A stretch of DNA of 64,000 nt from assembly GCF_013410665.1 (NCBI RefSeq), contig NZ_JACCFM010000001.1:930001-994000 (forward strand), written 5' to 3'. The notes beneath the pieces are model-generated. The model was not told the DNA's origin and made no database searches. It worked only from the letters and a program-made list of their open reading frames with translations. This DNA comes from Leifsonia psychrotolerans (GTDB lineage Bacteria; Actinomycetota; Actinomycetes; Actinomycetales; Microbacteriaceae). A program made the position numbers and the translations under genes. Below are positions 30,394-44,493 of the stretch, piece after piece; positions within the stretch are counted from its first letter, which is position 1; each line of letters starts with the position of its first letter.

Positions 30394-30812
30394 TGAGCGC
30401 TCGCACTAAGGCGCGCAAGCGCGCCATTGACATTCTGTACTCCGCCGACGTGCGGCAGATCACGATCCAAGATTCGCTTGCAGCCGAAGCGGTTCGCGCG
30501 ACGAGCGAACCCGACCGTCAGGCGTCGTGGCTGTACGCCCGCGAGATCGTTGATGGCGTCGTCGATCACCGCGAGGAGATCGACGAACTCATCGAGACCT
30601 ACTCGCAGGGGTGGACACTTTCACGGATGCCCATGATCGACCGCGCCATTTTGCGGATTGGCATCTGGGAGATCCTGTTCAACAACGCCGTTCCGCACGC
30701 CGTCGCGATTGATGAGGCTGTCGAGGCCGCTAAGGTGCTCTCGACGACCGATTCCGCCGGTTTTGTCAACGGTCTGCTCGGACGCATCGCCCAGACGGCT
30801 CCCTCTGCCTAA
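30393..30812 (+). CDS. nusB: Transcription antitermination factor NusB
   Basis: A 139-aa all-helical RNA-binding protein that joins NusE in rRNA antitermination. KARKRAIDILYSADVR at the N-terminus and AILRIGIWEIL with VAIDEAVEAAK at the C-terminus are its signatures. The GTG start overlaps the efp stop (TAGTG), the usual efp-nusB coupling. In most actinobacteria pyrR follows closely; here it is 13 kb away. Confidence 0.94.
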   Translation: MSARTKARKRAIDILYSADVRQITIQDSLAAEAVRATSEPDRQASWLYAREIVDGVVDHREEIDELIETYSQGWTLSRMPMIDRAILRIGIWEILFNNAVPHAVAIDEAVEAAKVLSTTDSAGFVNGLLGRIAQTAPSA

Positions 30813-30860
30813 AACTTCACCACCCGCCAAGGCCCAGCGGCCCTCGACGAAAGCACTCTG

Positions 30861-31592
30861 ATGTCACGCAGCATGAAGCCCCGCCTGGGCACCCTGATCT
30901 CCGCACTGGCTATTGCCGCCGTCATGACCGTCGGGGTGGCCGCCTGCGCACCCGTCGGCGGTGGGGATACCGGAGGCACCGGAGGCAGCAGCGCGCCGAG
31001 TGCCGCCCCGATTCCCACGGGAACCAGTGGTGCCGCCGACTTCGACGGCGGATTCCTCACGGTGGGCTCCGGCGCTACCGTGGTCGACGTCTACTTCGAC
31101 CCGATGTGCCCGATCTGTGGCGTCTTCGACAAGACGAACGGTGCGCAGTTGAGTTCATTCGTCGACGACGGCACGATTACCCTGCGTTTGCACCCGATGA
31201 ACTTTCTGAACCGTCTCTCGCAGGGCACCGAATACTCGACTCGCGCCGGTGGTGCACTCACCTGTGTGGCTGTCGCCGATCCGACGAAGACACTGCCCTA
31301 CCTCACGGCTCTCTTCGACGACCAGCCCGAAGAAGGTTCCGCGGGAATCGATGACGCCGCTCTTGTCAAACTGGCGTCTGATCTGGGTGTCTCTGACATT
31401 TCGGAGTGCGTGACGACACAGGCGTATGGCTCGTGGGTGCAGCACATCAATGATGCAGCTCTGGCAGGCCCGATCGAGGGTGCCGACATTCCGAAGGTCG
31501 AGGGCACGCCGACTGTGCTGGTGAATGGCAACAGCTTCACCGGTCAGGTCAACGACGCCAAGGGTCTCGCCGCTTTTATCACGGCGGGCTAA
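30861..31592 (+). CDS. DsbA-like thioredoxin-fold lipoprotein
   Basis: A 243-aa lipoprotein. The signal peptide ends at lipobox VAAC with lipidated C29, followed by a Gly/Ser/Pro linker. The thioredoxin fold has the active-site CPIC (C83-C86) in FDPMCPICGVFD and a cis-proline loop VEGTPTVLVNGN. It probably catalyses thiol-disulfide exchange at the outer face of the membrane. It lies 48 bases after nusB, possibly on the same transcript, and converges on the acyl-CoA dehydrogenase. Confidence 0.87.
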   Translation: MSRSMKPRLGTLISALAIAAVMTVGVAACAPVGGGDTGGTGGSSAPSAAPIPTGTSGAADFDGGFLTVGSGATVVDVYFDPMCPICGVFDKTNGAQLSSFVDDGTITLRLHPMNFLNRLSQGTEYSTRAGGALTCVAVADPTKTLPYLTALFDDQPEEGSAGIDDAALVKLASDLGVSDISECVTTQAYGSWVQHINDAALAGPIEGADIPKVEGTPTVLVNGNSFTGQVNDAKGLAAFITAG

Positions 31593-31674
31593 TCGGGCGC
31601 ATCACGCTCCCGGCCGCACACCCTGCACGAGTCGAACATTCACGTGCAAGCGCGTATGCGAACGGGCCCATGGT

Positions 31675-32808
31675 TTATTCCGCGGCGGGTGCGTCGAAGA
31701 GCGGATGCCCAGTGATGGCACGGCCGTAGAAGTCGTAGAGTGCGTCGGCCGTCGGCGCCATCACGTGCCCGGCGCGGGCGTCGCGAAAGTAGCGGTCGAT
31801 CTGGAGTTGCTGTGAGAACGCGGCCCCGCCGCAGACCCGCATCGCCGCATCGGTGATCCGCAATGCGGCGTCGTTGGATGCGGCCTTGCTACCGAGCACA
31901 TGAAGTGGGGTGTCGTCCTGAGGTTCGGCCACCCGATCGGCGCATTGGTCGAGATAGGCCGCGGCCATGGCGAGGTCGATCGACATCTTGGCCAGCTGCG
32001 CCCGGATGGTCGGCAGCGCCGAGAGGCTTGTGTCGAGGTGTTCCAGCCGAGCGCCCGTCGTATGGCGCACAGCGGCCTCAACGGCTGCCCTGGCGAGCCC
32101 GAGCGACACAGCCGAGTTTCCGAGATTGAACCAGGGCAGTACGGTTCCCATCATCAGATCGAAGCCTCCGGCCGCGGGACCGATCCGCTGGTCGGGGCTG
32201 AGTGTGAGGTCGAAGGTCATGGGGCACGATTCGTTCCCGCGAAAGCCCATGCCCGCCCACGCACGATCGATCGCCACACCCTCGGTGTGCGCTTGAATCG
32301 CGTAGAGGTCAACGCCGGCGGCATCTGGCGATCGGGTCGAGACAACGTAGACATCGGCCTGCCCGGCGGAGGTGACCCAGCTCTTTTTCGCAATCATGCG
32401 GATGCCATCGGCGTCCTCGGAGGGCTGGGACACAGGTGCCCAGAAATGTGAGCGGGATCCGGCTTCGGAGAAGGCCAGTGAGCCGAGTGAACGGCCGGTG
32501 GCCAGATCGCCAAGCAGATTGGGAAAGGCGGGTGGCGGCGCTGCCGCAAGAGGCATCGCCGCGCTGATATGCATGAGATAGATCATTGCCGTCGAACCGC
32601 AGGCGCCCGCGAGGGCGCTGACGACCCGTACGAGATCGCGCGGTCCGCCGCCGAGGCCACCGACGCTGACTGGCAGGGTCAGGCCGAGAAGGTTGGATGC
32701 ACGCAGCGCGTCCACCGCTTCGATCGGGAACCGGGCCTCCTTGTCGACGTCACTCGCGTGCGCGGCTGCGACGGTGAGAACGGGGTCGAGTCTGTCGGTG
32801 ACGTCCAT
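31675..32808 (-). CDS. Acyl-CoA dehydrogenase family flavoprotein
   Basis: A 377-aa FAD enzyme. The N-terminal helical domain (about 10-110), the beta domain with SFAFSEAGS-type text (LGSLAFSEAGSRSHFW) and the C-terminal helical domain ending in CGGAAFSQQLQIDRYFRDARAG are all present. The last motif carries the FAD and substrate-binding residues. Members oxidise acyl-CoA thioesters, or, in the monooxygenase branch, sulfur or nitrogen compounds; the short, atypical sequence leaves both open. The start at 32808 follows AAAGG. It lies 120 bases downstream of the GT87 gene and may be read from the same promoter. Confidence 0.82.
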   Translation of the reverse strand: MDVTDRLDPVLTVAAAHASDVDKEARFPIEAVDALRASNLLGLTLPVSVGGLGGGPRDLVRVVSALAGACGSTAMIYLMHISAAMPLAAAPPPAFPNLLGDLATGRSLGSLAFSEAGSRSHFWAPVSQPSEDADGIRMIAKKSWVTSAGQADVYVVSTRSPDAAGVDLYAIQAHTEGVAIDRAWAGMGFRGNESCPMTFDLTLSPDQRIGPAAGGFDLMMGTVLPWFNLGNSAVSLGLARAAVEAAVRHTTGARLEHLDTSLSALPTIRAQLAKMSIDLAMAAAYLDQCADRVAEPQDDTPLHVLGSKAASNDAALRITDAAMRVCGGAAFSQQLQIDRYFRDARAGHVMAPTADALYDFYGRAITGHPLFDAPAAE

Positions 32809-32928
32809 GGCTGGTACCTTTCCCGTGCAGGTGCGAGTCGGGGTGCGGGGTGGGCGGTCTCGGCAGGCCGAGGCGCGCGATCGCATCAAGTCAACTCTGC
32901 GCACGCTCATGCTGACAAGGCCGAGATC

Positions 32929-34359
32929 TTACGAACCACGGATGCCACGGTGTTGTCGATCTCGGCGGGCGGCCATGCGAGGAAGCCCGGGCTGCCGCTT
33001 CGATCGGCGGATCGCCCAACCGATAACCACCGTGATCGCGGCCACGGCGAGTGCGACGCGGAACGCGATGATGTCCGGCCGGACCTGCCATTCGGTTAAG
33101 GCGAGCGGCACGATGAGCCACTCCCAGCGATGAGTCAGCACGATGAAGGGGAGGAGCAGCAGGCCGTACCACGGGTACCGTGGGCTGATCACGAGCACGG
33201 TGGCGCCGACGAGTACGAGTTGGGCGAGCCACGGAGCCTGAGGGTCGGCCCACCAGAGGCACACGCCCGCGAGAATGGCGAGCAGCGCAGCTGCCACCGG
33301 CAGCGTCCACGTGGCGGGGAGTACCGTTCCGAGAAGTGCAAACCGGCTTCCGTTGTCGTAGCCTTCCTCGGCGAGATAACCCGGCAGGTAGCCCAATACC
33401 CTCGGGCCGGAGGCGAGCACGTAGGGCAGGTAGAGCCCGGCGAACGTCGCGACCGACGCCGCGACCACGGCGAGCGGCCGTCGCCGGAGCAGGGGCGGCG
33501 CCACAATGAGTGGAACGAGCTTGGTGGCGATGGATGCTCCGAGCGCGACACCGCCCCAGACTCGGCGACCGGATGCGACCAGCAGTGTCGCCGCGAGTGC
33601 CAGGGCCACGGCGAGGACGTCGACATGGGAGTTGTTGACGGCCTCGAGGGCGACGAAGGGCGACCACGCCCAGAGCGTAGCCCAGCGCTCGTTCTGCCCG
33701 TGGCGGCGCAGCGCGTTCAGGAGCATCCAGCTAATAAGAAGTGAGACCGCGAGCCCGGCCACTTGAAAGGGTCGGTACTCTGCGCTCGGCGGGACAACGA
33801 GGCGCACACCTAAGAAATAGAGCTCGGCCATAGGCGGGTAAATGGTGGGCGAGTGAGCACGATTGATGGCGGTGCAGAGCACTTTATCGCTCGGCACGGA
33901 GGTGGTCTCCACGATGTGCGTTCCCGTGCACTGCTCGGGCCCACCCGCGGTCCGCACGGGTGCGGGGAAGAGCCACTCCGGGCGGAGCCCGGCGAGCGCC
34001 TCATCCGCGGGAACGTGGTCGTACGGGGAAATTCCGGCGCCGGCGACGATTCCGTCCCAGGCGTAGCGGGCCGAGTCGGTGCTGGTGTTTGGCGTACCGA
34101 GCAGCGCGGCGCCCCCAATGACAAGTGCGCCCGCGACGACCATCGCGCGCACCATGCGGTCGGGCACACGGATAGCCGCGATGCAGGCGGCGGCGAACAT
34201 CGCCCAGGCCCCAGCCACCACGACCCCGTAGGCAAACCGGTCGTGTTGGCTGGACAGATTCAGCGTCGTCACGCAGAATCCGATGAGCGAGGCAGTCGCC
34301 GCCACCAGCAGCGCCGTGATGATGAGTGCGGGGGATCGGCGCACAGGGGCGTGAGTCAT
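32929..34359 (-). CDS. GT87/DUF2029 membrane mannosyltransferase-like protein
   Basis: A 476-aa protein with ten or more membrane segments. The extracytoplasmic loop STDSARYAWDGIVAGAGISPYD resembles the catalytic loop of polyprenyl-phosphate-sugar-dependent mannosyltransferases such as PimE, with an early Asp. It would transfer a sugar from a lipid-linked donor outside the membrane. It is third in an operon with a GT2 enzyme and a DUF2064 protein; its start overlaps the DUF2064 stop by four bases. Acceptor unknown. Confidence 0.82.
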   Translation of the reverse strand: MTHAPVRRSPALIITALLVAATASLIGFCVTTLNLSSQHDRFAYGVVVAGAWAMFAAACIAAIRVPDRMVRAMVVAGALVIGGAALLGTPNTSTDSARYAWDGIVAGAGISPYDHVPADEALAGLRPEWLFPAPVRTAGGPEQCTGTHIVETTSVPSDKVLCTAINRAHSPTIYPPMAELYFLGVRLVVPPSAEYRPFQVAGLAVSLLISWMLLNALRRHGQNERWATLWAWSPFVALEAVNNSHVDVLAVALALAATLLVASGRRVWGGVALGASIATKLVPLIVAPPLLRRRPLAVVAASVATFAGLYLPYVLASGPRVLGYLPGYLAEEGYDNGSRFALLGTVLPATWTLPVAAALLAILAGVCLWWADPQAPWLAQLVLVGATVLVISPRYPWYGLLLLPFIVLTHRWEWLIVPLALTEWQVRPDIIAFRVALAVAAITVVIGWAIRRSKRQPGLPRMAARRDRQHRGIRGS

Positions 34360-34982
34360 AGCTCCTCAAGCGCATTTCGAAAGGCCAGACCGAAGAGCGA
34401 GTTCGGAATCTGCGCGGCCACGGCCGCCGCATCCGCCGCGGTGTCCACATCCCGCAGCTCCACAAGATCCCGCACCCGCAGGCCCGCGCGTACCAAGGCC
34501 CGGCGCTGCTCGGCTCCGGTGTTGGGGCGAGACATTTGGATGCCGCGGGTGAGCCTCCCTCGAGGGTCGGCCAGTCCGAGCGCCCAAAACCCCCCGTCTG
34601 ATGCCGCGCCGATCCAAGCATCCACGTCACTCGGCCACGACTCGAACGCCGGGGCGAGCATGCCGGGCGTGACGTGAGGGGTGTCCATGCCAATCAGCAG
34701 CATGGGTTCGTCGAGAAGATCGAAGATCCCGGCCAACCGCACGTCAAGCGTTCCCTCACACTGCGACACCACCTCCCAGTCACGCCCCGCGGTCGCGGGC
34801 GGTGTGTCTCCGTCGAAGTAGAGTACGCGCCGGGTCGCCGGCACGCGGGCCGCCACCGTCAGGGTGTCCTCGAGGCTTGCTGCGGCGAGCGTCGCAGCCT
34901 GCCGCAGGGAAAACGGCGGGTGCAAGCGAGTCTTTACCGTTCCCGGTAAGCACTCCTTCGCGATGACGACGAGTGTGGTCAT
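34356..34982 (-). CDS. DUF2064 (TIGR04282-like) nucleotidyl/glycosyl transferase
   Basis: A 208-aa CofC-like single-domain enzyme. The N-terminus KECLPGTVKTRLHP is the nucleotide-binding loop; LLIGMDTPHVTP and AASDGGFWALGL are the further conserved segments. Databases call this family rSAM/selenodomain-associated or arsenosugar-biosynthesis transferase, but real substrates are mostly unproved. It overlaps both neighbours by four bases (ATGA), so the GT2-DUF2064-GT87 proteins are surely made together. Confidence 0.85.
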   Translation of the reverse strand: MTTLVVIAKECLPGTVKTRLHPPFSLRQAATLAAASLEDTLTVAARVPATRRVLYFDGDTPPATAGRDWEVVSQCEGTLDVRLAGIFDLLDEPMLLIGMDTPHVTPGMLAPAFESWPSDVDAWIGAASDGGFWALGLADPRGRLTRGIQMSRPNTGAEQRRALVRAGLRVRDLVELRDVDTAADAAAVAAQIPNSLFGLAFRNALEEL

Positions 34983-35641
34983 AGTCGCCCCAGCACTCGG
35001 CCCATATCGAAGACCGCGGCGATCGTGCCGCGCACAGTGCCGGTGACCTTAGAGCGCCCGACTCTGGGCGCATAGTGAACGTCGGACTCGACGATGCGCC
35101 AGCCCGCCTCAGCACCGCGGATCACCATTTCCAGGGGATAGCCGTTCCTCCGGTCGATGAGTGCGAGCTGGCGTAGCTCGGCCGTGCGCGCGGCGCGCAG
35201 CGGGCCGAGGTCGTACAGCCTCGAGCCGATTCTCTGGGAGATGCGGGCTGCAAGGATGGCGTTCGCCAGCCGCGCGTGTGGCGGCCAGGCACCCGACGCC
35301 GTGGGCCGCCGACGCCCGAGCACGAGGTCGGCCTCGTCGGCCATCAGCAGCTCCACCAACCGGGGCAACTCGGCCGGGTCGAGCGAGGCATCCGCGTCGC
35401 AGAAGGCTACAAGCGGTGCGGAAGCTGCGGCGAGTCCCGCCTGCGCAGCCGCGCCGAAACCACGGCATGGCTCCGTCACGACTGTCGCACCAGCCGCCTG
35501 TGCGACCTTTGCTGAGCCGTCTGTGCTTCCGTTATCGACCACGATCGCTCGGTAGCCGGCCGGAATTCGCGACAAAACCCACGGCAGCGCGTCGCGCTCG
35601 TTCAGACACGGCAGCACGACATCAACCCGGGGGGATCGCAT
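34979..35641 (-). CDS. GT2 family glycosyltransferase
   Basis: A 220-aa soluble GT-A enzyme. VVLPCLNERDALPWVL and VVDNGSTDGSA form the nucleotide site, and FCDADAS is the DxD metal motif. It lacks the C-terminal membrane segments of dolichyl-phosphate mannose synthases but has their core, so charging a polyprenyl phosphate with a sugar is plausible. It is first in the minus-strand operon and divergent from the response regulator across 111 bases. Confidence 0.87.
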   Translation of the reverse strand: MRSPRVDVVLPCLNERDALPWVLSRIPAGYRAIVVDNGSTDGSAKVAQAAGATVVTEPCRGFGAAAQAGLAAASAPLVAFCDADASLDPAELPRLVELLMADEADLVLGRRRPTASGAWPPHARLANAILAARISQRIGSRLYDLGPLRAARTAELRQLALIDRRNGYPLEMVIRGAEAGWRIVESDVHYAPRVGRSKVTGTVRGTIAAVFDMGRVLGRL

Positions 35642-35752
35642 GGTTTGAGGTTATGCCTGCGACCGACCAGCGTCGAGGGCCCCAGTGTTACGGATCGAGG
35701 ACAGTGTGAAATTGGCGGCGCAGGCGGGCCCGACGGTACGTAGTCTGAAGGG
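35642..35752. promoter_or_regulatory. Divergent promoter region between the two operons
   Basis: A 111-base region separates the starts of the GT2 operon and the response-regulator operon. No long gene fits. I see no confident -35/-10 pair or palindrome, so it is marked from gene layout alone. Confidence 0.35.
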
Positions 35753-36472
35753 GTGCTTATTCCCGTCACAGCACCAATTGAGAATGACGACCTCGTGGAT
35801 CGCCGCGTGCTCGTCGTTGATGACGACCCGACGGTGTCTGAGGTCTCTACCGCCTACCTGCAGGCGGCGGGATTCATCGTCGACCGAGCTTCTGACGGCT
35901 TCGATGCGCTCAGTTCAGTGGAACGCACTCCACCCGACCTCATCGTGCTTGATCGGATGTTGCCGGGCATCGACGGGATCGAGGTGTGTCGTCGGATCCG
36001 GAAACTCGGCCGGACGCCGATCATCATGGTCACTGCGCTGGGCGCCGAGGATGAGAGGATACTCGGTCTCGAGGCCGGCGCCGACGATTACCTGGCCAAG
36101 CCATTCTCGCCACGGGAACTGGTGTTGCGGGTGCAATCGGTTCTTCGCCGCTCGGTGAGTGAGTTCATGCCGGAGTCTCCGTTTGAACGCGGCCCGTTCC
36201 GCCTGGATCCGAACGCTCGCATTGTCACCCGTGAGGGTGAACCGCTCACCCTGACCGTGCGTGAATTCGATCTGTTGGCGTTCCTCCTCAAACGGCCGAA
36301 TCAGACCTTCGGTCGTGAGGAACTGTTGCGTGCCGTGTGGGGCTGGACGTACGGCGACCTGTCCACCGTGACGGTGCACATACGCAGGCTGCGCGAGAAG
36401 ATCGAGAGCGACCCGACACATCCGTTGATTCTCGCCACTGTCTGGGGTATCGGCTACCGGCTGGACCTGTGA
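35753..36472 (+). CDS. OmpR-family response regulator
   Basis: A 239-aa two-domain regulator. The receiver domain has D23-D25, phospho-acceptor D67 (IVLDRMLPG) and K116 (LAKPFSPREL). The C-terminal winged helix ends in HIRRLREKIE and WGIGYRLDL. The GTG at 35753 follows GAAGGG. It is seven bases from the histidine kinase gene and heads a six-gene operon, so it probably controls that operon and perhaps the divergent GT operon. Confidence 0.93.
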   Translation: MLIPVTAPIENDDLVDRRVLVVDDDPTVSEVSTAYLQAAGFIVDRASDGFDALSSVERTPPDLIVLDRMLPGIDGIEVCRRIRKLGRTPIIMVTALGAEDERILGLEAGADDYLAKPFSPRELVLRVQSVLRRSVSEFMPESPFERGPFRLDPNARIVTREGEPLTLTVREFDLLAFLLKRPNQTFGREELLRAVWGWTYGDLSTVTVHIRRLREKIESDPTHPLILATVWGIGYRLDL

Positions 36473-36479
36473 ACTCCTG

Positions 36480-37631
36480 ATGATCCCTCTCCCTGATCTG
36501 CTCGCCCTCGCCTCGATCGCCTTGGGCGCGACCCTGGCGGTGATGGCAGCAAGTGTCGTAGTGCTGCTCGGGCTCCGCCGCACCTCGATCATCGTGCAGG
36601 CGTGCGTTGTCGTGACCTCCACGATCCTTGCGGTGGTGTTGAGCATGATTGCCGCGGCGAACGCAATGTTCCTCTCGGCACATGAGTTGAGCGTCGCCGC
36701 GAACATCGCTGTCATCTCCGGCGCGCTCTCCCTCATGCTTGTTGCCGTGCTCGGTTGGGTCGTGGTGCGAAACTCCCGTGCACTCTCACGGGATGCGCGG
36801 CGCATCGGCGACGGAGAAATCGTCGAGAACACCGGTCGTCGGGTCAACCTGGAACTCTCCAACCTGGCGGCGGAGCTCACGGCCACGAGTGCGAAGCTGA
36901 CTGAGGCCCGAGAACACGAGGAATCGGTGCAGAAGTCTCGCCGGGAGCTCATCGCGTGGATCTCCCACGACCTGCGCACCCCGTTGGCGGGTATCAGGGC
37001 GATGGCGGAGGCCCTTGAAGACTCGATGGTTGAGAATCCGCCGAACTACTACGGGCGCATCCGGGAGCAGGCCGAGCGGCTTTCAATTTTGGTCGACGAC
37101 CTTTTCGAACTCTCCAAGATCGATGCCGGCACCTTCACACTCACGTTGCAGAGTGTGTCACTCTATGACGTTGTCAGCGATACCGTCGCCGACCTGCGCC
37201 CGCTCTCGCGCGGTCGTGAGATTGACTTTCACTCGCCCCCCGGCCAAGATCTTTCGGTCACGGCCGACCCGAGAGCACTGTCGCGGGCCGTCGGCAATCT
37301 GCTCCTCAATGCGATCCAGCACACGCCGGCCGGTTCGCCGATCACGGTCAAAGTGGAGATTGTCGACGGCAAGGCCAGCGTCGCGGTGATCGATCGAGGT
37401 GGTGGCATCGCAGAGAGCGATCTGGCCCAGATCTTCGAGCCGGGCTGGCGCGGTTCGGCGGCCCGCACCCCGCACCCGTCCGCCTCCGGTGGGGCGGGAC
37501 TCGGGCTGGCGATTGTGCGGGGGATTGCGGCCGCCCACAGAGGCGAGGTCAGCGTGTGCAATGTGCCGGGTGGCTGCCGATTCGATCTTGTGATTCCCCG
37601 TGATCTCACGTCATCCGTTCGCGGTTCGTAA
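36480..37631 (+). CDS. Membrane sensor histidine kinase
   Basis: A 383-aa kinase. Three membrane segments (about residues 6-32, 36-62 and 70-96) have very short loops, so it has no periplasmic sensor domain and probably senses within the membrane or through a partner. A HAMP-like region follows, then the H box with H163 (IAWISHDLRTPLAGI), N box LLLNAIQHTP and the G boxes GGGIAESD and GGAGLGLAIV. It is the partner of the preceding regulator. The DoxX and small membrane proteins downstream are possible signal partners. Confidence 0.92.
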   Translation: MIPLPDLLALASIALGATLAVMAASVVVLLGLRRTSIIVQACVVVTSTILAVVLSMIAAANAMFLSAHELSVAANIAVISGALSLMLVAVLGWVVVRNSRALSRDARRIGDGEIVENTGRRVNLELSNLAAELTATSAKLTEAREHEESVQKSRRELIAWISHDLRTPLAGIRAMAEALEDSMVENPPNYYGRIREQAERLSILVDDLFELSKIDAGTFTLTLQSVSLYDVVSDTVADLRPLSRGREIDFHSPPGQDLSVTADPRALSRAVGNLLLNAIQHTPAGSPITVKVEIVDGKASVAVIDRGGGIAESDLAQIFEPGWRGSAARTPHPSASGGAGLGLAIVRGIAAAHRGEVSVCNVPGGCRFDLVIPRDLTSSVRGS

Positions 37632-37694
37632 GCACTCGGTGGTTGTCGCACGGCCGACGCGGGTCTTTGATGAGAGCACCAGAAGGGAGTCGCC

Positions 37695-38231
37695 ATGATC
37701 GAGCCGCTCGCGACGCACGCATCCAGCGCTCTGGATGCGCGATCCAGCCGCGTGCTGATCGCAATCGTGAGGGTCGGCGTCGCCCTGCTCTGGATTCAGA
37801 ACGTGGGGTGGAAGGTGCCGCCCGACTTCGGCAGGGCCAGCAACAGTGGCCTCTACTATTGGAGCGGATTGGCCGTGAGTCACCCGGTCTTTCCGCCATA
37901 CTCTGCGGTTGTCGACGCCGTCGTGCGCCCCGGCATCGAGTTCTTTGGCTGGACGACGATTCTCATTGAGGGCGGGCTCGGAGCCTTTCTGCTGATCGGC
38001 CTCGCCACGCGGCTCTGGGCGGTGATCGGCATCGCCCAGACCATCGCCATCACGCTGTCGGTTCTGAACGCTCCCCACGAATGGCACTGGTCTTACTACC
38101 TGATGTTGCTGGCGCACATCGCACTGTTCGCCACCGCCGCTGGTCGTTGCTACGGCCTGGACGGGGTTCTGCGCCCATCGTGGACCGCATCCGGAACCCG
38201 ATTTGCGCGACTTATGGTGAGGCTCTCATGA
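37695..38231 (+). CDS. DoxX/DoxD family membrane protein
   Basis: A 178-aa protein with about four membrane segments. VALLWIQNVGWKVPPDF near residue 30, GLYYWSGLAV, and GLATRLWAVIG fit the DoxX family, which includes the small subunit of thiosulfate:quinone oxidoreductase. AGAAGGGAG lies upstream of the ATG at 37695. It overlaps the next gene by four bases. A link to sulfur or quinone chemistry is inferred only from the family and from the TusA-like domain two genes on. Confidence 0.8.
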   Translation: MIEPLATHASSALDARSSRVLIAIVRVGVALLWIQNVGWKVPPDFGRASNSGLYYWSGLAVSHPVFPPYSAVVDAVVRPGIEFFGWTTILIEGGLGAFLLIGLATRLWAVIGIAQTIAITLSVLNAPHEWHWSYYLMLLAHIALFATAAGRCYGLDGVLRPSWTASGTRFARLMVRLS

Positions 38232-38602
38232 TGACGCGGCCCCTCGCGAATGCCGTGCTCGCCCTGGGCATCGCCGCTGTCGTCGGCAGTGCGTTCGCAC
38301 TGACCGGTGGGCTCCCACCGGCGGTCCACCTCATCGAGGTTCCCGGGGCAAGCGCGTGGGTGTTGCTGGGTCTCGGCCTGCTGGCGATCGTGGCGTCGCG
38401 GGTGCGCAGTGTGGCGCTCACGGTCGTCAGCGGAGCAGCCTTCGTGGGAGCAGCCCTGCTGCAGCTTGTGCAGCTCGGCCGGTCAGCGAACCTGCTGGGC
38501 GGCAACGCGTCGACAATGGCGCTGATCGGCGGTCTCGGAATTGGGCTGCTCGTGGTCGCACTCGTCGCGCGAAATCGGCCGCCCTCGGATGAAAGGGAAT
38601 GA
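38228..38602 (+). CDS. Small four-segment membrane protein
   Basis: A 124-aa protein with four predicted membrane segments (about 7-25, 44-60, 64-83 and 95-113) and a hydrophilic C-terminal tail. No family is recognised. The ATGA overlap with the DoxX gene indicates coupled translation; it probably works with DoxX in the membrane. Confidence 0.75.
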   Translation: MMTRPLANAVLALGIAAVVGSAFALTGGLPPAVHLIEVPGASAWVLLGLGLLAIVASRVRSVALTVVSGAAFVGAALLQLVQLGRSANLLGGNASTMALIGGLGIGLLVVALVARNRPPSDERE

Positions 38603-38607
38603 CACCC

Positions 38608-39417
38608 ATGTCGAATCCTCTGCTCGTTGGTGCGGTGGCATATACGCCCAACGTCGTCACCATCTGGGAGGGAATGCGCGAATACTTCGCCGGAACGCCG
38701 TCTGAGATGGACTTCATCCTTTTCTCGAACTATGGCCGGCAGGTCGACGCGCTGATCGACGGCAGCATCGACCTGGCTTGGAATACCAACCTTGCCTGGG
38801 TGCGCACGGTGCTTCAGACCGGTGGTGAGTGCACGGCCGTCGCCGCGCGCGACACCGACACCGTGTTCCAGTCAGTATTCATCAGTCACGCGGGTGCTGG
38901 CATGAAGGGGCTCGCGAGTCTCAGTGGCCGACGGTTGGCGCTCGGCTCCCAAGATTCCGCGCAAGCCGCGATCCTGCCCATCCATTTTCTCCGGAAGGCA
39001 GGCCTCGGTGACAGCGTAGAACTGCTGCGCATCGACAGCGATGTGGGCAAACACGGCGACACCGGTCGGAGCGAACTCGATGCGCTGCGCGCGGTGCTCG
39101 ACGAGCGAGCCGACGCGGCGGCGATCGGCATCAACACCTGGGATGCGATCGGCCGGGACGAGCTGATGCCCGGTGCCTTCGAGGCGTTCTGGGAGTCGCC
39201 GCACTACAGTCACTGCAACTTCACGGCACTCACCACGCAGCCCGAGTCCCGTGTCGCTCCCTGGGTTGATCACCTGCTGGCGATGGACTGGGAGAACCCG
39301 GCCCACCGCCCCATCCTCGAGATGGAGGGCCTCAGACAGTGGGTGCGACCGCGGATGGAGGGCTACGGGTCGCTTTTTGAGGCGGTTCAGGAGCAGGAAG
39401 TGGCGCCCCGATGGTGA
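38608..39417 (+). CDS. Cytoplasmic PhnD/SsuA-like substrate-binding protein
   Basis: A 269-aa protein of the type II periplasmic-binding fold, similar to PhnD phosphonate-binding proteins (SNYGRQVDALIDGSIDLAWN, SGRRLALGSQDSAQAAI). It has no signal peptide, lipobox or membrane segment, so it stays in the cytoplasm, and no ABC permease or ATPase genes accompany it. AAAGGGA lies nine bases before the ATG at 38608; an in-frame ATG at 38599 is too close to it. It overlaps the radical SAM gene by seven bases. It could be a ligand carrier or an enzyme of the family that includes ThiY/Thi5-type proteins. Confidence 0.8.
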   Translation: MSNPLLVGAVAYTPNVVTIWEGMREYFAGTPSEMDFILFSNYGRQVDALIDGSIDLAWNTNLAWVRTVLQTGGECTAVAARDTDTVFQSVFISHAGAGMKGLASLSGRRLALGSQDSAQAAILPIHFLRKAGLGDSVELLRIDSDVGKHGDTGRSELDALRAVLDERADAAAIGINTWDAIGRDELMPGAFEAFWESPHYSHCNFTALTTQPESRVAPWVDHLLAMDWENPAHRPILEMEGLRQWVRPRMEGYGSLFEAVQEQEVAPRW

Positions 39418-40415
39418 CCGGAAGCGTTGTCCTCGATTTGGTCGGCCGCATCGGTGCCGTGCACACCGGCGACACCGTGACCGTTCCGATCGAACCGCAC
39501 GACAGCGAAGAGAGCGGACGAATCATTCGCGAGTGGTGCACGCGCACCGGCAATGAGCTTCTCGAATTCACGGGGTGGAGCGCGACGGTGCGCCGTGGCA
39601 TCCGCGGCGACCCCCTCGCCGGTCTCTCGGCGGACCATCTTCCGGGAACCCGGCTGTGGATGTACACCAATTTCGACTGTAATCTGGCCTGCGACTACTG
39701 CTGCGTGCGCTCCTCGCCGCAGGCCGACCGGCGTGCGCTCGGCATCGACCGGGTGCGGCAGCTTGCGGCCGAAGCGGTCGAGGCAGGAGTGTCCGAACTC
39801 ATCCTCACCGGCGGGGAACCGTTCCTGCTTCCCGACCTCGACGAACTCGTCGCCGCGTGCACTGACCGGCTTCCGACCACGCTGCTCACCAACGGGATGC
39901 TCTTCAACGGCAACCGGCTTGAACGATTGCGACGGATGAACCGGGATCGTCTCACGCTGCAAATCAGCGTCGACTCCGCCACCCCCGAAGGCCATGACGC
40001 GCACCGGGGTGCCCGTTCGTGGCAGCGCGCCGTTGCCGGCATTCGCATCGCCCATGAGGAGGGGTTTCGGGTGAAAGTAGCCGCGACCCTGCCGGCCGAG
40101 CAAATTCATGAGCTCGGGCCCTTTCACGACTTCCTTGACTCGATCGGGATCGAGCGCGACGACCAAGTTATTCGGGCCCTCGCCCATCGAGGCAATGCCG
40201 AGGCAGGTATCGAGCTCACGGTCGAGTCACTCATCCCGGAGGTCACGATTACAGCGGACGGCGTGTATTGGCATCCTGTCGCTGCCGACCATGAGGACCA
40301 ACTGGTCACCAGCCAGATATTTCCGCTCGCCGACGCGATCGACGAGATACGCCGCCGTTTCATCGAACACCGGGTGCGCGCCAACGCCGCGGCGGAATGG
40401 TTTCCCTGCGCCTGA
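39411..40415 (+). CDS. Radical SAM enzyme with TusA-like N-terminal domain
   Basis: A 334-aa protein. The CxxxCxxC cluster is C90, C94 and C97 (FDCNLACDYC), followed by GGEP (LTGGEPFLL), so it binds [4Fe-4S] and S-adenosylmethionine. Residues about 5-55 (HTGDTVTVPIEPHDS, WCTRTGNELLEF) resemble the second half of a TusA/SirA sulfur-carrier fold, with C43 as a possible thiol. The C-terminus has one more Cys (FPCA) and no full SPASM/twitch cluster. It is last in the six-gene operon, with CAGGAAG upstream. The reaction is unknown. Confidence 0.83.
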   Translation: MVTGSVVLDLVGRIGAVHTGDTVTVPIEPHDSEESGRIIREWCTRTGNELLEFTGWSATVRRGIRGDPLAGLSADHLPGTRLWMYTNFDCNLACDYCCVRSSPQADRRALGIDRVRQLAAEAVEAGVSELILTGGEPFLLPDLDELVAACTDRLPTTLLTNGMLFNGNRLERLRRMNRDRLTLQISVDSATPEGHDAHRGARSWQRAVAGIRIAHEEGFRVKVAATLPAEQIHELGPFHDFLDSIGIERDDQVIRALAHRGNAEAGIELTVESLIPEVTITADGVYWHPVAADHEDQLVTSQIFPLADAIDEIRRRFIEHRVRANAAAEWFPCA

Positions 40416-40426
40416 CCTGCCGGGCG

Positions 40427-41476
40427 TCAGTCCCGCAGCCGGGCGGTGGCAAACTCACGCATGCCCTGTGCGAAACCCACCACCGGCTGCCAGTCCAACT
40501 CCCGGCGAGCACGGTCCGAGCTCGCCGTGATGTGCCGTACGTCGCCGGCACGGAATTCCCCGGTGACCACGGGCGCTGGGGCACCGGCATTCGTTGCCAG
40601 CGCGGTGGCCATCTGCAGGATTGTGGTGACCTCACCACTGCCGATGTTAAAGGCCCGAACCGTGCCGGGCTGTTGCGCGGCGCTCCATCCGACCGCGGCG
40701 ATGTTAGCCGTCGCGACGTCATGCACGTGCACGAAGTCGCGGCGCTGTGCGCCGTCTTCGAAGACTCGAGGCGCCTCACCGCGCTCGATGGCCGAGCGAA
40801 ACAGCGACGCGACACCTGCATACGGCGTGTTCCGCGGCATCCCGGGTCCATAAACGTTGTGGTAGCGCAGGTTGGCGAGAGTGCCCCCGACTTCCCTGGC
40901 CCAGCTGGCGAGCAGCAGTTCCTCGGCGAGCTTGGTCACCGCATAGACGTTGCGCGGGTCGAGGGCAGCGTCCTCCCCGAGCAGGGCCGGATCGAGGGCC
41001 TCGCCGGTCTCCGGATCCTGCGGATCGAACCGGCCCGCGCCCAGATCGGATGACCGACGACTCGGCGGGCGAACGTCGCCGTGTCGGCCGCGGTACATGC
41101 CCTCGCCGTAGACGACCATTGAGGAGGCACACAGCACCCGGCTGACGTCGTGTCGCACGAGTCCTGCGACCAGCTCCGCCGTGGCCAGGACGTTGGAGCG
41201 CGCGTAGTCCGGCGCGTCCTGCAGATCGACGCCGAGCCCGACTTTGGCCGCCTGGTGGCAGACCACGTCGATGCCGTCGAGGGCGGCATCCAGCGCCGAG
41301 CGGTCTGCCACCTCCCCGACGTGGAGGTCGACTGCGTCGGGCAGCACCGGCCGGCTGCCGTGCACGTCGGGCCGGAGTGAATCGAGCACGCGCACCGACC
41401 AGCCCCGGGCCACCGCCGCCTGCACAATGTGTGAGCCGATAAAGCCAGCACCTCCGGTGACGAGCAGTCGCGTCAT
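40427..41476 (-). CDS. NAD-dependent sugar-nucleotide epimerase/dehydratase
   Basis: A 349-aa extended SDR. The Rossmann motif TGGAGFIGSH is at residues 8-17, and the catalytic YxxxK (NVYAVTKLAEE) is near 200. It probably interconverts or dehydrates a UDP- or dTDP-sugar. It converges on the radical SAM gene, 11 bases apart. It probably supplies sugars for the GT2/DUF2064/GT87 set. Start ATG at 41476 (MTRLLVTGG) gives the usual SDR N-terminus; the frame is open upstream to 41617. Confidence 0.88.
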   Translation of the reverse strand: MTRLLVTGGAGFIGSHIVQAAVARGWSVRVLDSLRPDVHGSRPVLPDAVDLHVGEVADRSALDAALDGIDVVCHQAAKVGLGVDLQDAPDYARSNVLATAELVAGLVRHDVSRVLCASSMVVYGEGMYRGRHGDVRPPSRRSSDLGAGRFDPQDPETGEALDPALLGEDAALDPRNVYAVTKLAEELLLASWAREVGGTLANLRYHNVYGPGMPRNTPYAGVASLFRSAIERGEAPRVFEDGAQRRDFVHVHDVATANIAAVGWSAAQQPGTVRAFNIGSGEVTTILQMATALATNAGAPAPVVTGEFRAGDVRHITASSDRARRELDWQPVVGFAQGMREFATARLRD

Positions 41477-41670
41477 GGCGCCTCGCATGTGCCACCCGGC
41501 TGGTGCCCGGCATCTCCGGGCGGGCCGATCGGACCGTCTCTCTCGAATCCCTGATCTGCCATTCGTGCTCCTGCCAGTTCTGCATCCACCCTCTGAACAC
41601 TGTGACACCAACGGCATCCGTTGTCTGCGGGACAGCCTTACGATCCGGTGACAGGACCGCCAGCCTCTAC

Positions 41671-42198
41671 TTACTCAGCCCGCGGAACGACGAAGCGCTG
41701 CAGCAGGGCGTCCTGACCGTCGAGCTCGACCCACGGCTTGTCAACAGTCAAGACGGCCAGCGCGCTCGTCGGAAAGCGCGCAGTGGCCTGTTGGTAAGCG
41801 AGCGCCTGTGAATGCGCCGACGCCAGGGCAAGGATCAGTTCCTGCACGCCGGGCATATGGGCAATGACGAGCAGGGTGCGGATACTGTCGGGCACGTGGT
41901 TGATGACCGACAGCATCCGTTTCGGGAAAGCCGCATACAGTTCCTCGCTTACGACAGGCTCAGGGATGCCGGCACCGAGTGCGGCGCGCACCCCCGCGCA
42001 GGTCTGCTGGGTGCGCACCGCCGATGAACAGAGAATGTAGTCGGGTCGCACGTCATTGTCGCGCAGCCAGAGGCCGGCCAATGCCGCTTCTTGATAGCCC
42101 CGTTCCAGCAGCGGTCGATCGTGGTCTGAGACTCCGTCAGGCCAATCCGACTTCGCGTGACGCATGATCACCAGGCGCTTCGAGGGTTTCTCAGTCAT
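41671..42198 (-). CDS. SixA-like histidine phosphatase
   Basis: A 175-aa phosphatase. The RHA motif has nucleophile H14 (LVIMRHAKSDWPDG) and a second His in VIAHMPGVQEL near 113. SixA proteins dephosphorylate phosphohistidine in phosphorelays; others act on small phosphates. It could affect the two-component system 5 kb away, but nothing in the sequence links them. Confidence 0.85.
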   Translation of the reverse strand: MTEKPSKRLVIMRHAKSDWPDGVSDHDRPLLERGYQEAALAGLWLRDNDVRPDYILCSSAVRTQQTCAGVRAALGAGIPEPVVSEELYAAFPKRMLSVINHVPDSIRTLLVIAHMPGVQELILALASAHSQALAYQQATARFPTSALAVLTVDKPWVELDGQDALLQRFVVPRAE

Positions 42199-42327
42199 GC
42201 GCTCAGCCTAGAACTCTCGGGCCGTGCGCCGCAGCCTCCTCATTTCTGTTGAGATTCTCACCCGCAGGGTGCCGGGAGGCGCTGTCGAGCCCCCCGCACC
42301 GGTGCTATGTTCTGCCTGAAAAGCGTA

Positions 42328-42356
42328 GGGGGTGCACAACTCTGTCGGGGGTGCAC
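42328..42356 (+). repeat. Pair of direct repeats upstream of the APC permease
   Basis: GGGGGTGCAC occurs at 42328-42337 and 42347-42356, 19 bases apart, about 15-40 bases before the permease start. TATGTT at 42306-42311 could be the -10 element. Two helical-turn-spaced direct repeats may bind a regulator. The second copy is just before the AAGGAG ribosome-binding site. Confidence 0.45.
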
Positions 42357-42370
42357 GAAGGAGAAAGACC

Positions 42371-43846
42371 ATGGCCGACACCGACGTCGTGAAGCCTCAG
42401 GTGCCCGAACATCAGCTGCAAGCCGACGGAATCACAGCCGCCGGGTCGATTGTGATGGCGGTCGCCGGCAGCGCTCCCGCCTATTCGATTGCGGCAACGA
42501 CGGCAACATTGGTTGCCGTTGCCGGACTCGCCAGCCCCGCCGCGCTGCTGTGGTGCGGTCTTCCCATGCTCGGCATCGCCTGGGCGTTTTCCTACCTCGG
42601 CCGCGCCGATGTCAACGCCGGCGCCTCCTACTCGTGGGTGGGTCGTGCCCTGCACCCCATCCTGGGCTTCTTCTCGGGCTGGGCGTTGGTGGTCTCGGCC
42701 ACCATCTTTATGGTGGCCGGTGCGCTTCCCGCCGGGGTCATGACCGTGGCGCTGTTCAGTCCCGAGAACATGGGCAACGTGCCCCTGGTGACCGGGATCG
42801 GTGCGGTTTGGTTTCTGATCATGGCTACCTGCGTACTCGTGGGAGTCCGAATCACAGCCCGCGCCCAGTGGATCATGTCGTCGATCGAAGTGGCCATCCT
42901 GGTGGTATTCGCCATTGCCGCGATCGTGCACGCCATTGTTTCGAGTCACGCCGGGCCCGACTTCTCCTGGTCCTGGCTCGGCTTCAGCCACTTCACCGGT
43001 ACCGGCGCATTCGTGGCGGCAGCGCTCATCGCGGCCTTCTACTACTGGGGCTGGGACGTGGCATCCAACCTCAACGAAGAAACGAAGAACGGGCGTAAAG
43101 CCTCCGGTAAGGGCGGCATCATCGGTGTGATCATCGTGTTCGTCTTGTTCGAAGTTTTCACGATCGCCACTCTCGTGATTCTGCCCACCAAGACCATCGA
43201 CGCGAACAGCGGAAACGTTCTGGGCGTGCTCGGCGAGGCGATCTGGCCGGGAATCGGTGGCAAGATCCTGATCATCGCGGTCATGCTCTCGACCATTGCC
43301 ACTCTCGAGACCACGCTGATCCAAGTCACCCGCACCCTGTTCGCGATGGGCCGTGACCACACCATCCCGGAGCGGTTCGGTCACGCCCACCCGAAGTGGC
43401 GCACGCCCGCATTTGCGACTCTGGTCGTGACCGGTGTCTCAGTTGTGCTGTTCATCGGCTCGAACTTCCTCGGCACTGTGGGCGACATCCTGAGCAATGC
43501 GATCAGCTCGATCGGCCTGCAGATCGCTTTCTACTACGCCCTGGCCGGCATCGCCGTGGTGGTCGCCTACCGCAAGGTGATCTTCACGTCGGTGAAGAAC
43601 TTCATCTTCATCGGACTGTGGCCGGCGCTGGGCGCGCTCTTCATGGTCTGGATCTTCATCGTGTCGATTCCGTCGCTCGAGACAATCGTGGTGATCATCG
43701 GCATCGGAGCTCTCGCCCTCGGCATCATCCCGCTCGTGCTGTTCTGGAAGAAAGGCGCGGCATACTTCCAGCGGCGTCCGTTGGAACTTCCCGACGAACT
43801 CGATGCGGTCTCGCCGGAGAACATTGACCTCGACGCTCCACGCTAG
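42371..43846 (+). CDS. APC superfamily amino acid permease
   Basis: A 491-aa transporter with about twelve membrane segments. SIVMAVAGSAPAYSIAATTA near residue 30 is the unwound segment 1, and FYYWGWDVASNLNEETKNGRK near 225 is the segment 6 signature. Substrate is unknown; the type suggests an amino acid or amine. AAGGAG upstream supports the ATG at 42371. It is divergent from SixA and lies just before the pyr operon but is probably independent of it. Confidence 0.9.
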   Translation: MADTDVVKPQVPEHQLQADGITAAGSIVMAVAGSAPAYSIAATTATLVAVAGLASPAALLWCGLPMLGIAWAFSYLGRADVNAGASYSWVGRALHPILGFFSGWALVVSATIFMVAGALPAGVMTVALFSPENMGNVPLVTGIGAVWFLIMATCVLVGVRITARAQWIMSSIEVAILVVFAIAAIVHAIVSSHAGPDFSWSWLGFSHFTGTGAFVAAALIAAFYYWGWDVASNLNEETKNGRKASGKGGIIGVIIVFVLFEVFTIATLVILPTKTIDANSGNVLGVLGEAIWPGIGGKILIIAVMLSTIATLETTLIQVTRTLFAMGRDHTIPERFGHAHPKWRTPAFATLVVTGVSVVLFIGSNFLGTVGDILSNAISSIGLQIAFYYALAGIAVVVAYRKVIFTSVKNFIFIGLWPALGALFMVWIFIVSIPSLETIVVIIGIGALALGIIPLVLFWKKGAAYFQRRPLELPDELDAVSPENIDLDAPR

Positions 43847-43906
43847 GCAGCCAAAGCGCCTGATTGTTCCTGCTAGGCTTGAAAACGTATTGACAACCTT
43901 TAAGAG

Positions 43907-43930
43907 CCGTCCTGTGAGACGGGGAAGGGA
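43907..43930 (+). promoter_or_regulatory. PyrR-binding-loop hairpin in the pyr leader
   Basis: CCGTC (43907-43911) and GACGG (43918-43922) form a 5-bp stem with loop CTGTGA. The strand GTCCTGTGAGAC matches the PyrR-binding loop consensus RUCC-N-G-N-GAG. The ribosome-binding stretch GGGAAGGGA follows directly (43922-43930). PyrR bound with UMP would hide that site, so translation repression is the likely mode, as reported for mycobacterial pyrR leaders. No separate terminator hairpin is seen. Upstream, TAGGCT (43874-43879) may be the -10 element. Confidence 0.7.
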
Positions 43931-43938
43931 GTCGGTTG

Positions 43939-44493
43939 ATGGCGCGTACCGTGCTGCAGCAGGCTGACATTATTCGAGCGTTGACTCGGATCTCGCACGA
44001 GATCCTGGAGTCCAATCGTGGCTCAGAGAACCTCGTGATCCTCGGCATTCCGACTCGAGGCGTTGCTCTGGCCCGTCGGATCGCCGACACGATCGCCCAG
44101 ATCGAGCCGACAGCGGCCCCCGTGGCCGTCGGAACGCTCGATGTGACGATGTACCGCGATGACCTGTCCCACACCCGCACGCGCACACCGGCCCCAACCT
44201 ATGTACCTGGCAGCGTCGACGGCAAGACCGTCGTACTCGTTGATGACGTCTTGTTCTCCGGCCGCACCATCCGCTCAGCCCTCGACGCACTCGGGGACCA
44301 CGGTCGGCCGCGCGCTGTGCGTCTGGCCGTGCTCGTCGACCGGGGCCACCGCGAACTCCCCATCCGCGCCGACTTCGTGGGCAAGAACCTGCCGAGCTCG
44401 ACCGATGAACGCATCAACGTGCACCTGGTTGAGACCGACGGCGACGAGTTCGTCAGTATCGAATCTGTGAACGACGGCGGAGTGCAGGCATGA
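43939..44493 (+). CDS. pyrR: Pyrimidine operon regulator / uracil phosphoribosyltransferase
   Basis: A 184-aa PyrR. The PRPP-binding motif [14 protein letters not shown] is near residues 96-110, and [14 protein letters not shown] precedes it. It binds pyr mRNA when UMP is high and has uracil phosphoribosyltransferase activity. The ATG at 43939 has GAAGGGA upstream; a TTG one codon earlier is less likely. The stop overlaps pyrB by four bases. The RNA target lies in its own leader. Confidence 0.95.

What the first reader, a model, noticed from the sequence alone, without database searches (positions are those of the whole stretch)
35753..40415. Six-gene two-component / DoxX / PhnD-like / radical SAM operon of unknown product
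Response regulator, sensor kinase without an external domain, DoxX protein, a four-segment membrane protein, a PhnD-like protein and a TusA-radical SAM enzyme lie in one + strand unit. The last four genes overlap or nearly abut. None of the known pathways for these families accounts for the whole set. A sulfur- or thiol-related modification sensed at the membrane is a reasonable hypothesis, not a demonstrated one.
Basis: partly seen in the sequence, partly recalled or inferred. Interest (0 to 1): 0.78.

Follow-up and report, generated by a model that had tools for sequence, protein, structure and literature searches.

The report
Uncharacterised Rv1678–Rv1681-type radical SAM cluster
A block of genes that nearly always stays together in the bacteria where it was found builds an unknown radical-chemistry enzyme system, here merged with a sugar-transfer gene set; its product is unknown, and its gene families are named after the tuberculosis bacterium's copies.

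Summary
The six genes are real and correctly placed, but the proposed unit is drawn wrongly. TM4, the PhnD-like protein (SBP) and the radical SAM enzyme (rSAM) pass the cut-offs of the curated, uncharacterised Rv1678–Rv1681 families; DoxX goes with them. Their fifth partner, the Rv1679/FadE16 flavoprotein, lies outside the finding at 31675–32808 (-), in a divergent unit with GT87, DUF2064 and GT2.

rSAM, SBP and FadE16 occur in exactly the same 4 of 140 same-family genomes. SBP accompanies rSAM at 68 of 70 loci, FadE16 at 64, DoxX at 54. The response regulator and kinase (6 of 70) belong rather to a partly independent sugar-transfer locus, merged with the core here and at a minority of other loci. 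Two sister rSAM clades carry other partners without SBP or FadE16.

FadE16 lacks the catalytic Glu (Ala in 65 of 65). The SBP's ligand pocket is rebuilt around an invariant His-Cys pair (70 of 70). The weakly TusA-like N-terminus lacks the sulfur-carrier Cys, against the sulfur-carrier idea. Likeliest function: radical modification of an anionic or sugar-linked envelope precursor (confidence about 0.3). The substrate remains unknown.

The parts
31675..32808 (-). Rv1679/FadE16-family acyl-CoA-dehydrogenase-fold flavoprotein without the catalytic Glu
   Evidence: NCBIfam NF049984 644.1 bits, cut-off 600; Ala at the Glu position in 65 of 65 homologues; at 64 of 70 rSAM loci
32929..34359 (-). GT87 membrane glycosyltransferase
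   Evidence: PF09594 E 8.4e-16; at 5 of 70 rSAM loci
34356..34982 (-). DUF2064 protein (nearest NCBIfam TIGR04282, below cut-off)
   Evidence: PF09837 E 5.9e-18; TIGR04282 104 bits, cut-off 134; at 17 of 70 rSAM loci
34979..35641 (-). GT2 glycosyltransferase, resembling polyprenyl-phosphate-hexose synthases
   Evidence: PF00535 E 1.5e-20; best NCBIfam dolichyl-phosphate hexose transferase 79.5 bits, below cut-off 375; at 13 of 70 rSAM loci
35753..36472 (+). OmpR-type response regulator (glyco-locus module)
   Evidence: Pfam; at 6 of 70 rSAM loci and 6 of 12 glyco-loci
36480..37631 (+). membrane histidine kinase without an external domain
   Evidence: Pfam; hydropathy; at 6 of 70 rSAM loci and 5 of 12 glyco-loci
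37695..38231 (+). DoxX-family membrane protein
   Evidence: PF07681 E 6.9e-5; at 54 of 70 rSAM loci
38228..38602 (+). four-segment membrane protein, Rv1678_C family
   Evidence: NF049986 98.4 bits, cut-off 50
38599..39417 (+). Rv1680-family cytoplasmic SBP-fold protein with invariant His205-Cys206
   Evidence: NF049985 487.5 bits, cut-off 400; AlphaFold2 pLDDT 90.4; nearest fold PhnD1/PtxB; His-Cys in 70 of 70
39411..40415 (+). Rv1681-family radical SAM enzyme with a TusA-like N-terminus lacking the carrier Cys
   Evidence: NF049973 537.3 bits, cut-off 380; the three cluster Cys in 71 of 71
40427..41476 (-). NAD-dependent sugar epimerase/dehydratase (glyco-locus module)
   Evidence: PF01370 E 9.8e-44; at 5 of 70 rSAM loci

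Best explanation
This is a merged copy of two modules. Core module: DoxX-TM4 (membrane), an acyl-CoA-dehydrogenase-fold flavoprotein, a cytoplasmic PhnD-fold protein and a radical SAM enzyme, the uncharacterised Rv1678-Rv1681 set. Second module: a glyco-locus (GT2, DUF2064, GT87, epimerase) with a two-component system. Shown: the gene set, its conservation and its linkage. Inferred: how it works. The rSAM makes a 5'-deoxyadenosyl radical and modifies a small anionic precursor, most likely a sugar phosphate or other sugar-linked metabolite. The PhnD-fold protein holds or turns over that precursor in a pocket now built around His205-Cys206. The base-less flavoprotein does a linked two-electron step. 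DoxX-TM4 tie the chemistry to the membrane, perhaps as an electron or thiol-redox partner. Where the glyco-locus is present, GT2 loads the modified sugar on a polyprenyl carrier and GT87 transfers it outside.
For: TM4, SBP, rSAM and flavoprotein pass curated Rv1678-Rv1681 cut-offs. rSAM, SBP and flavoprotein are in exactly the same 4 of 140 genomes. Gene order: SBP and rSAM on one strand within 120 bases at 59 of 68 loci, flavoprotein and SBP within 250 bases at 62 of 64. Distance matrices agree (rho 0.85-0.91; shared descent alone can also give this). DUF2064 near 17 of 70 loci and GT2 near 13 of 70, in Actinomycetota, Acidobacteriota, Gemmatimonadota, Verrucomicrobiota and Dormiibacterota. 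Two sister rSAM clades without SBP and flavoprotein also have such genes: clade B (DoxX at 6 of 6; DUF2064 and GT2 at 4 of 6) and clade C (phosphoesterase-rSAM fusion in 3 of 3 scanned; GT2-type at 4 of 5, DUF2064 at 2 of 5). A, B and C fall together, support 100/99, with one distant row (L112) also inside. By fold, BlsE is the best match of rSAM and DesII is near; both act on sugar nucleotides (recalled). SBP is nearest to phosphate/phosphite binders.
Against: No substrate is known. By sequence the best solved match of rSAM is the peptide-modifying SkfB, ahead of BlsE, and by fold SkfB and SuiB follow BlsE closely, so the sugar reading from structure is weak. 51 of 70 rSAM loci have neither GT2 nor DUF2064 nearby. 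In the three other family genomes that have the core, the DUF2064 locus is elsewhere in the genome. That locus also exists without the core (34 of 136 genomes without rSAM have the DUF2064). RR-HK may regulate only the glyco genes.
Confidence: 0.3

Rival explanations
1. Organosulfur or thiol chemistry: the base-less flavoprotein and the His-Cys SBP-fold protein handle a sulfinate, sulfonate or thiol metabolite, and the rSAM breaks or makes a C-S bond, with DoxX as the redox partner.
For: After its own family the flavoprotein's next NCBIfam models are 3-sulfinopropanoyl-CoA desulfinase (104.9 bits), acryloyl-CoA reductase (96.0) and SfnB (91.2), all far under cut-off. DoxX hits the thiosulfate oxidoreductase DoxD model weakly. 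Thioredoxin-like and (weakly matched) CcdA/DsbD-like genes adjoin the core at L067, L074 and L107. Clade B carries an AhpD-like gene. In M. tuberculosis rv1676 (peroxiredoxin-like) and dsbF lie beside the cluster (passages of PMC5499769; adjacency to rv1678 read from the gene numbers).
Against: The TusA-like domain lacks the CPxP Cys. The SBP resembles phosphate/phosphite binders more than the sulfonate binder SsuA. The best solved relatives of the flavoprotein are ordinary acyl-CoA dehydrogenases. Among 56 operon neighbours scanned no sulfur family recurred in the 25 of 80 families shown (one Cys/Met-metabolism enzyme appeared once).
Confidence: 0.2
2. Adenosylation route like ArsS or HpnH: the rSAM adds the 5'-deoxyadenosyl group to an acceptor, an MTA-phosphorylase-like enzyme removes adenine, and DUF2064/GT2 build a glycoside on the remaining ribose.
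For: MTAP-like genes near four rSAM loci, L081, L092 (A) and L116, L117 (C, two near-identical genomes), and a partial match at L036. DUF2064 and GT2 are near TIGR04282/TIGR04283, which NCBIfam names arsenosugar biosynthesis. Adenosylation of arsenic by a radical SAM enzyme is reported (passage of PMC12159101).
Against: rSAM is far under the HpnH cut-off (57.1 of 225), and a clade C member under the ArsS cut-off (53.6 of 300). The genome's three PF01048 genes lie outside the window. MTAP may only clear 5'-deoxyadenosine.
Confidence: 0.15
3. The core makes a small redox cofactor or repair system for extracytoplasmic proteins; sugars are incidental.
For: Membrane and thiol redox genes stand near the core at some loci, and the related glyco-locus carries a cytochrome b561-molybdopterin oxidoreductase family in 12 of 12 loci fetched (one member scanned). 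Cmr, which activates rv1676, is redox-responsive (abstract and passages of PMC5499769).
Against: That molybdopterin gene has no match in the window, and the genome has only a 29% match. No gene of 60 aa or more looked like a recurring precursor; shorter ones were not sought.
Confidence: 0.12
4. The SBP is an ordinary phosphonate-uptake or sensing protein and the neighbours are unrelated.
For: PF12974 E 4.2e-27 and PhnD1-like fold.
Against: No signal peptide is possible. Pocket residues are replaced. Strict co-occurrence with rSAM and flavoprotein.
Confidence: 0.03

Closest known systems
M. tuberculosis Rv1678-Rv1679(fadE16)-Rv1680-Rv1681(moeX) neighbourhood, NCBIfam NF049986/NF049984/NF049985/NF049973
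   Same: All four curated families pass their cut-offs in the window; no function assigned by those models.
   Different: In the window DoxX and TM4 are separate genes, the flavoprotein sits in a divergent - strand unit, and a glyco-locus with a two-component system is merged in. At mycobacterial loci such as L084 one ORF of 329 aa carries the DoxX match.
PhnD1/PtxB phosphate/phosphite-binding proteins
   Same: Fold (7s6g E 2.5e-23); Tyr45 and Ser120 match ligand residues Tyr44 and Ser124.
   Different: Cytoplasmic; Thr125-Ser126, Asp203 and Tyr204 become Ala/Gly-Gln/His, His205 and Cys206 by my reading of the HMM alignment. His156 falls near Ser158/Glu159, where the alignment is less sure.
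3-sulfinopropanoyl-CoA desulfinase and other acyl-CoA-dehydrogenase-fold enzymes
   Same: Three-domain FAD fold. That the desulfinase also lacks the Glu base is recalled, not tested.
   Different: 104.9 bits against a 600 cut-off; own invariant motifs such as VMAP.
BlsE cytosylglucuronate decarboxylase
   Same: Best Foldseek match of rSAM, E 8.1e-11.
   Different: 17% identity; rSAM has its own C-terminal WHP motif and penultimate Cys.

Membership tests
Rv1681 family radical SAM (NF049973) | score over curated cut-off 380 | tested here: met
   537.3 bits
Rv1680 family SBP-like (NF049985) | score over curated cut-off 400 | tested here: met
   487.5 bits
Rv1679 FadE16 (NF049984) | score over curated cut-off 600 | tested here: met
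   644.1 bits
Rv1678_C membrane protein (NF049986) | score over curated cut-off 50 | tested here: met
   98.4 bits
MoaA (name MoeX implies molybdopterin synthesis) | TIGR02666 cut-off 284 | tested here: not met
   66.3 bits
SPASM radical SAM | PF13186 SPASM domain | tested here: not met
   no PF13186 match at E 0.1
PhnD phosphonate-binding protein | TIGR03431 cut-off 261; secreted; ligand residues kept | tested here: not met
   23.9 bits; no signal peptide possible; ligand residues replaced
TusA sulfur carrier | CPxP Cys and Pfam cut-off 28.6 | tested here: not met
   13.8 bits, profile positions 35-63 only; two homologues 17-62 and 14-69 of 70; position of the CPxP motif is recalled
Acyl-CoA dehydrogenase (active) | catalytic Glu in the YEGT region | tested here: not met
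   Ala in 65 of 65; alignment to solved enzymes
Thiosulfate:quinone oxidoreductase DoxD | NF041179 cut-off 300 | tested here: not met
   28.2 bits
ArsS arsenosugar radical SAM | TIGR04167 cut-off 300 | tested here: inconclusive
   clade C member L008 53.6 bits; not among the best 25 of 76 families shown for the window protein
Enzymatic function of any part | measured reaction | not testable with these tools
   needs a bench assay

The most novel reading that the evidence does not exclude
An undescribed radical-SAM pathway, found in several phyla, in which two proteins from well-known folds have been turned to new jobs: a transport-protein fold become a cytoplasmic enzyme or carrier with a His-Cys site, and an acyl-CoA dehydrogenase fold without its base. 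Together they make a new modified envelope sugar. The radical SAM family has changed its partner enzymes between clades A, B and C while often keeping sugar-transfer genes.
Probability: 0.22. Interest if true: 0.8.

Novelty: new variant of a known kind. Interest (0 to 1): 0.52.

Why it matters
The Rv1678-Rv1681 families are curated and conserved but I found no assigned reaction in the papers searched, and one carries a misleading name (MoeX) that its sequence does not support. The links found here (the missing flavoprotein, the glyco-locus, two sister clades with other partners, the replaced catalytic residues) turn an unexplained neighbourhood into a short list of assays. If the product were found it would also say what the set may do in mycobacteria.

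Tried and rejected
Rejected: an ordinary phosphonate transporter (no signal peptide, pocket changed, no ABC gene among the window genes annotated); molybdopterin synthesis as 'MoeX' suggests (66 of 284 bits); an active TusA sulfur carrier; a thiosulfate oxidoreductase; chance assembly. A RiPP system is unlikely but not excluded: SPASM is absent and no recurring precursor-like gene was seen, but genes under 60 aa were not called.

Led nowhere: literature. Searches on gene names, on DUF2064/TIGR04282/TIGR04283, on radical SAM with DoxX and on base-less acyl-CoA dehydrogenases listed no paper whose title or abstract start names a function for the set. One search found 326 papers and listed 40, many for unrelated words starting 'moex'; I did not open those that mention fadE16 or Rv1679. 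On PMC8562490 I saw one passage, a table calling Rv1680 a putative phosphonate transporter component. A Pfam tally of 56 operon neighbours (54 of the 87 listed, plus two more, one of only 20 residues) showed no dominant extra partner; 25 of its 80 families are shown. Family counts came from crude ORF picking and are replaced.

Rows dropped: of 79 loci, L112 and L113 were too distant. Of the other 77, 70 have near-full rSAM matches; L057 and L065 are cut by contig ends, and L087 has only a partial SBP match and was not followed up. Alignments A1, A2 and A3 used 37, 36 and 17 sequences; residue counts used every homologue with over 80% coverage and 42% identity: 71, 70 and 65. The tree used 32 of those 71 rSAM rows. 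The glyco-locus was read at 12 of the 37 other genomes with DUF2064.
Full report
OBSERVATION. The six ORFs stand where the finding says, with the domains it names. The last four overlap. The SBP has no in-frame start upstream of 38599, so it cannot carry a signal peptide. The finding stops too early on the left. On the - strand, GT2 (34979-35641), DUF2064 (34356-34982) and GT87 (32929-34359) run away from the same intergenic region, followed by an acyl-CoA-dehydrogenase-fold gene (31675-32808).

WHAT IT IS. NCBIfam names the parts. rSAM is the Rv1681 family (537.3 bits, cut-off 380), SBP the Rv1680 family (487.5/400), TM4 the Rv1678 C-terminal family (98.4/50), and the flavoprotein the Rv1679/FadE16 family (644.1/600). 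The set is therefore the M. tuberculosis Rv1678-Rv1681 neighbourhood, known to annotators. I found no assigned function in the listings and passages I saw. The old name MoeX does not fit: MoaA model 66.3 of 284 bits.

CO-OCCURRENCE. In 140 same-family genomes, rSAM, SBP and flavoprotein occur in exactly the same four, and in none of the other 136. If the sets were independent, one exact coincidence would have a chance of about 6.5e-8 (my arithmetic, ignoring relatedness). In the phylum sample, 3 of 296 genomes have rSAM over its cut-off, so the system is rare. Over 70 loci with near-full rSAM matches, SBP is present at 68, flavoprotein at 64, DoxX at 54, the diverged TM4 detectably at 31, DUF2064 at 17, GT2 at 13, RR and HK at 6 each, GT87 and epimerase at 5 each. 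For the 58 of these with at least 3.5 kb on both sides: SBP 57, flavoprotein 55, DoxX 49, DUF2064 17, GT2 13. SBP and rSAM lie within 120 bases on one strand at 59 of 68 loci; the nine others (L096-L104; Verrucomicrobiota, Acidobacteriota, Gemmatimonadota, one alphaproteobacterial MAG) have them on opposite strands. Flavoprotein and SBP lie within 250 bases on one strand at 62 of 64. In the window they do not: the flavoprotein is about 5.8 kb away on the other strand. Distance matrices correlate (rSAM-SBP 0.90, SBP-flavoprotein 0.91, rSAM-DoxX 0.54; none of 500 permutations reached these), though common descent alone can do this.

TWO MODULES. The RR-HK and glycosyltransferase genes form a glyco-locus of their own. 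DUF2064 is in 38 of 140 family genomes: all four with rSAM, and 34 of the 136 without. I fetched 12 of the 37 other loci. All 12 have GT2, DUF2064, a methyltransferase-like family, a family that in the one member scanned is cytochrome b561 plus molybdopterin oxidoreductase, and its small partner; 9 have GT87, 6 RR and 5 HK. In the three other rSAM-positive genomes the core and this locus lie apart. In the window they are merged; the molybdopterin gene has no match there, and the genome has only a 29% match to it.

SISTER CLADES. More distant rSAM relatives form two clades. Clade B (L119-L124) has an AhpD-like gene, rSAM and DoxX at 6 of 6 loci and TM4 at 5 of 6; DUF2064 and GT2 at 4 of 6, HK at 4, RR and epimerase at 3, GT87 at 2. 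L119 (5.4 kb) and L121 (11 kb) show none of these glyco genes. No SBP or flavoprotein was seen. Clade C (L114-L118) has a metallophosphoesterase-rSAM fusion in the three members scanned; a GT2-type gene (one member scanned) at 4 of 5, DUF2064 and an MTAP-like gene at L116 and L117, RR-HK at L115, and no DoxX, SBP or flavoprotein. A, B and C together are set apart from the other radical SAM rows with support 100/99, except that one distant Qipengyuania row (L112) falls inside on a very long branch. B and C are each one clade; A is not resolved as one clade. What links the three is this rSAM lineage, with sugar-transfer genes at part of the loci of each; SBP and flavoprotein were seen in A only.

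ALTERED PARTS. In rSAM the three cluster Cys are invariant (71 of 71, and in B and C). Cys98 and Cys333 are in 71 of 71 clade A rows; Cys333 is also in 5 of 5 clade C rows and is absent from 6 of 6 in B. There is no SPASM match. The AlphaFold2 model has mean pLDDT 86.6, and the best Foldseek matches are BlsE, SkfB, SuiB and DesII; by sequence SkfB comes first. The N-terminal 60 residues match TusA weakly, not including the first 13 to 34 profile positions; the predicted order helix-strand-helix-strand-strand suits a TusA fold without its first strand, near which the carrier Cys would sit (recalled). In Verrucomicrobiota and some other homologues the match begins only at about residue 31 to 42. 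In the SBP, the PhnD1 ligand residues reported in PMC10284923 (passages; similar residues in passages of PMC5700983) map by the HMM alignment to Tyr45, Ser120, Ala/Gly121, Gln/His122, the Ser158/Glu159 region, His205 and Cys206. Asp148, Lys151, His152, Asp154, His205 and Cys206 are identical in 70 of 70. In the flavoprotein the Glu of YEGT is Ala in 65 of 65, and positions 226-228, where I place the isovaleryl-CoA dehydrogenase-type base (recalled), hold no Glu in any of the 65.

MECHANISM. Clades A, B and C share radical chemistry and, at part of their loci, sugar activation and transfer genes. A phosphate-type binding fold in A and a fused phosphoesterase in C hint at a phosphorylated substrate. 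I therefore favour radical modification of a phosphorylated or sugar-linked envelope precursor, with the base-less flavoprotein doing a redox step. Only the gene set, linkage and residue changes are shown; substrate and reactions are inferred. The sulfur/thiol reading stays open because thiol-redox genes stand nearby at some loci and a sulfinate desulfinase and SfnB are among the flavoprotein's next-best curated models.

VERDICT. A real, conserved, uncharacterised system, larger and differently bounded than reported; a new arrangement of a neighbourhood already known to annotators.

Noticed in passing
window 30393-44493: The cassette sits between nusB-DsbA-like (30393-31592) and pyrR (43939). 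In 14 of 29 relatives' pyrR loci nusB lies under 400 bases from pyrR; in two it is 849 and 934 bases away, one (L134) with a DsbA-like gene between. The other 13 showed no nusB within the 1.5 kb held. About 12 kb may have been inserted here.
   Followed up: partly
L165-L176: A glyco-locus with GT2, DUF2064, a methyltransferase-like gene and a cytochrome b561-PF00174 molybdopterin oxidoreductase family in 12 of 12 fetched family loci (one member of the last two families scanned). It recalls MsrPQ (from memory).
   Followed up: partly
L008, L010, L012 (same places as L114, L116, L118): Rv1681-like radical SAM domain fused to a metallophosphoesterase (Metallophos_2) in these three.
   Followed up: partly
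L067, L074, L107: Thioredoxin-like and weakly CcdA/DsbD-like genes directly beside the core (one member of each scanned).
   Followed up: partly
window 41671-43846: A SixA-like phosphatase (-) and an amino acid permease-like gene (+) lie inside the same apparent insertion (both names are recalled from the sequence, no family scan).
   Followed up: no
L107: Two ORFs of the rSAM family on one short contig, one on each strand.
   Followed up: no
L099, L100, L103: A secreted-looking protein of about 244 aa stands directly before rSAM in Acidobacteriota (K44); the member of L103 has no Pfam match.
   Followed up: no
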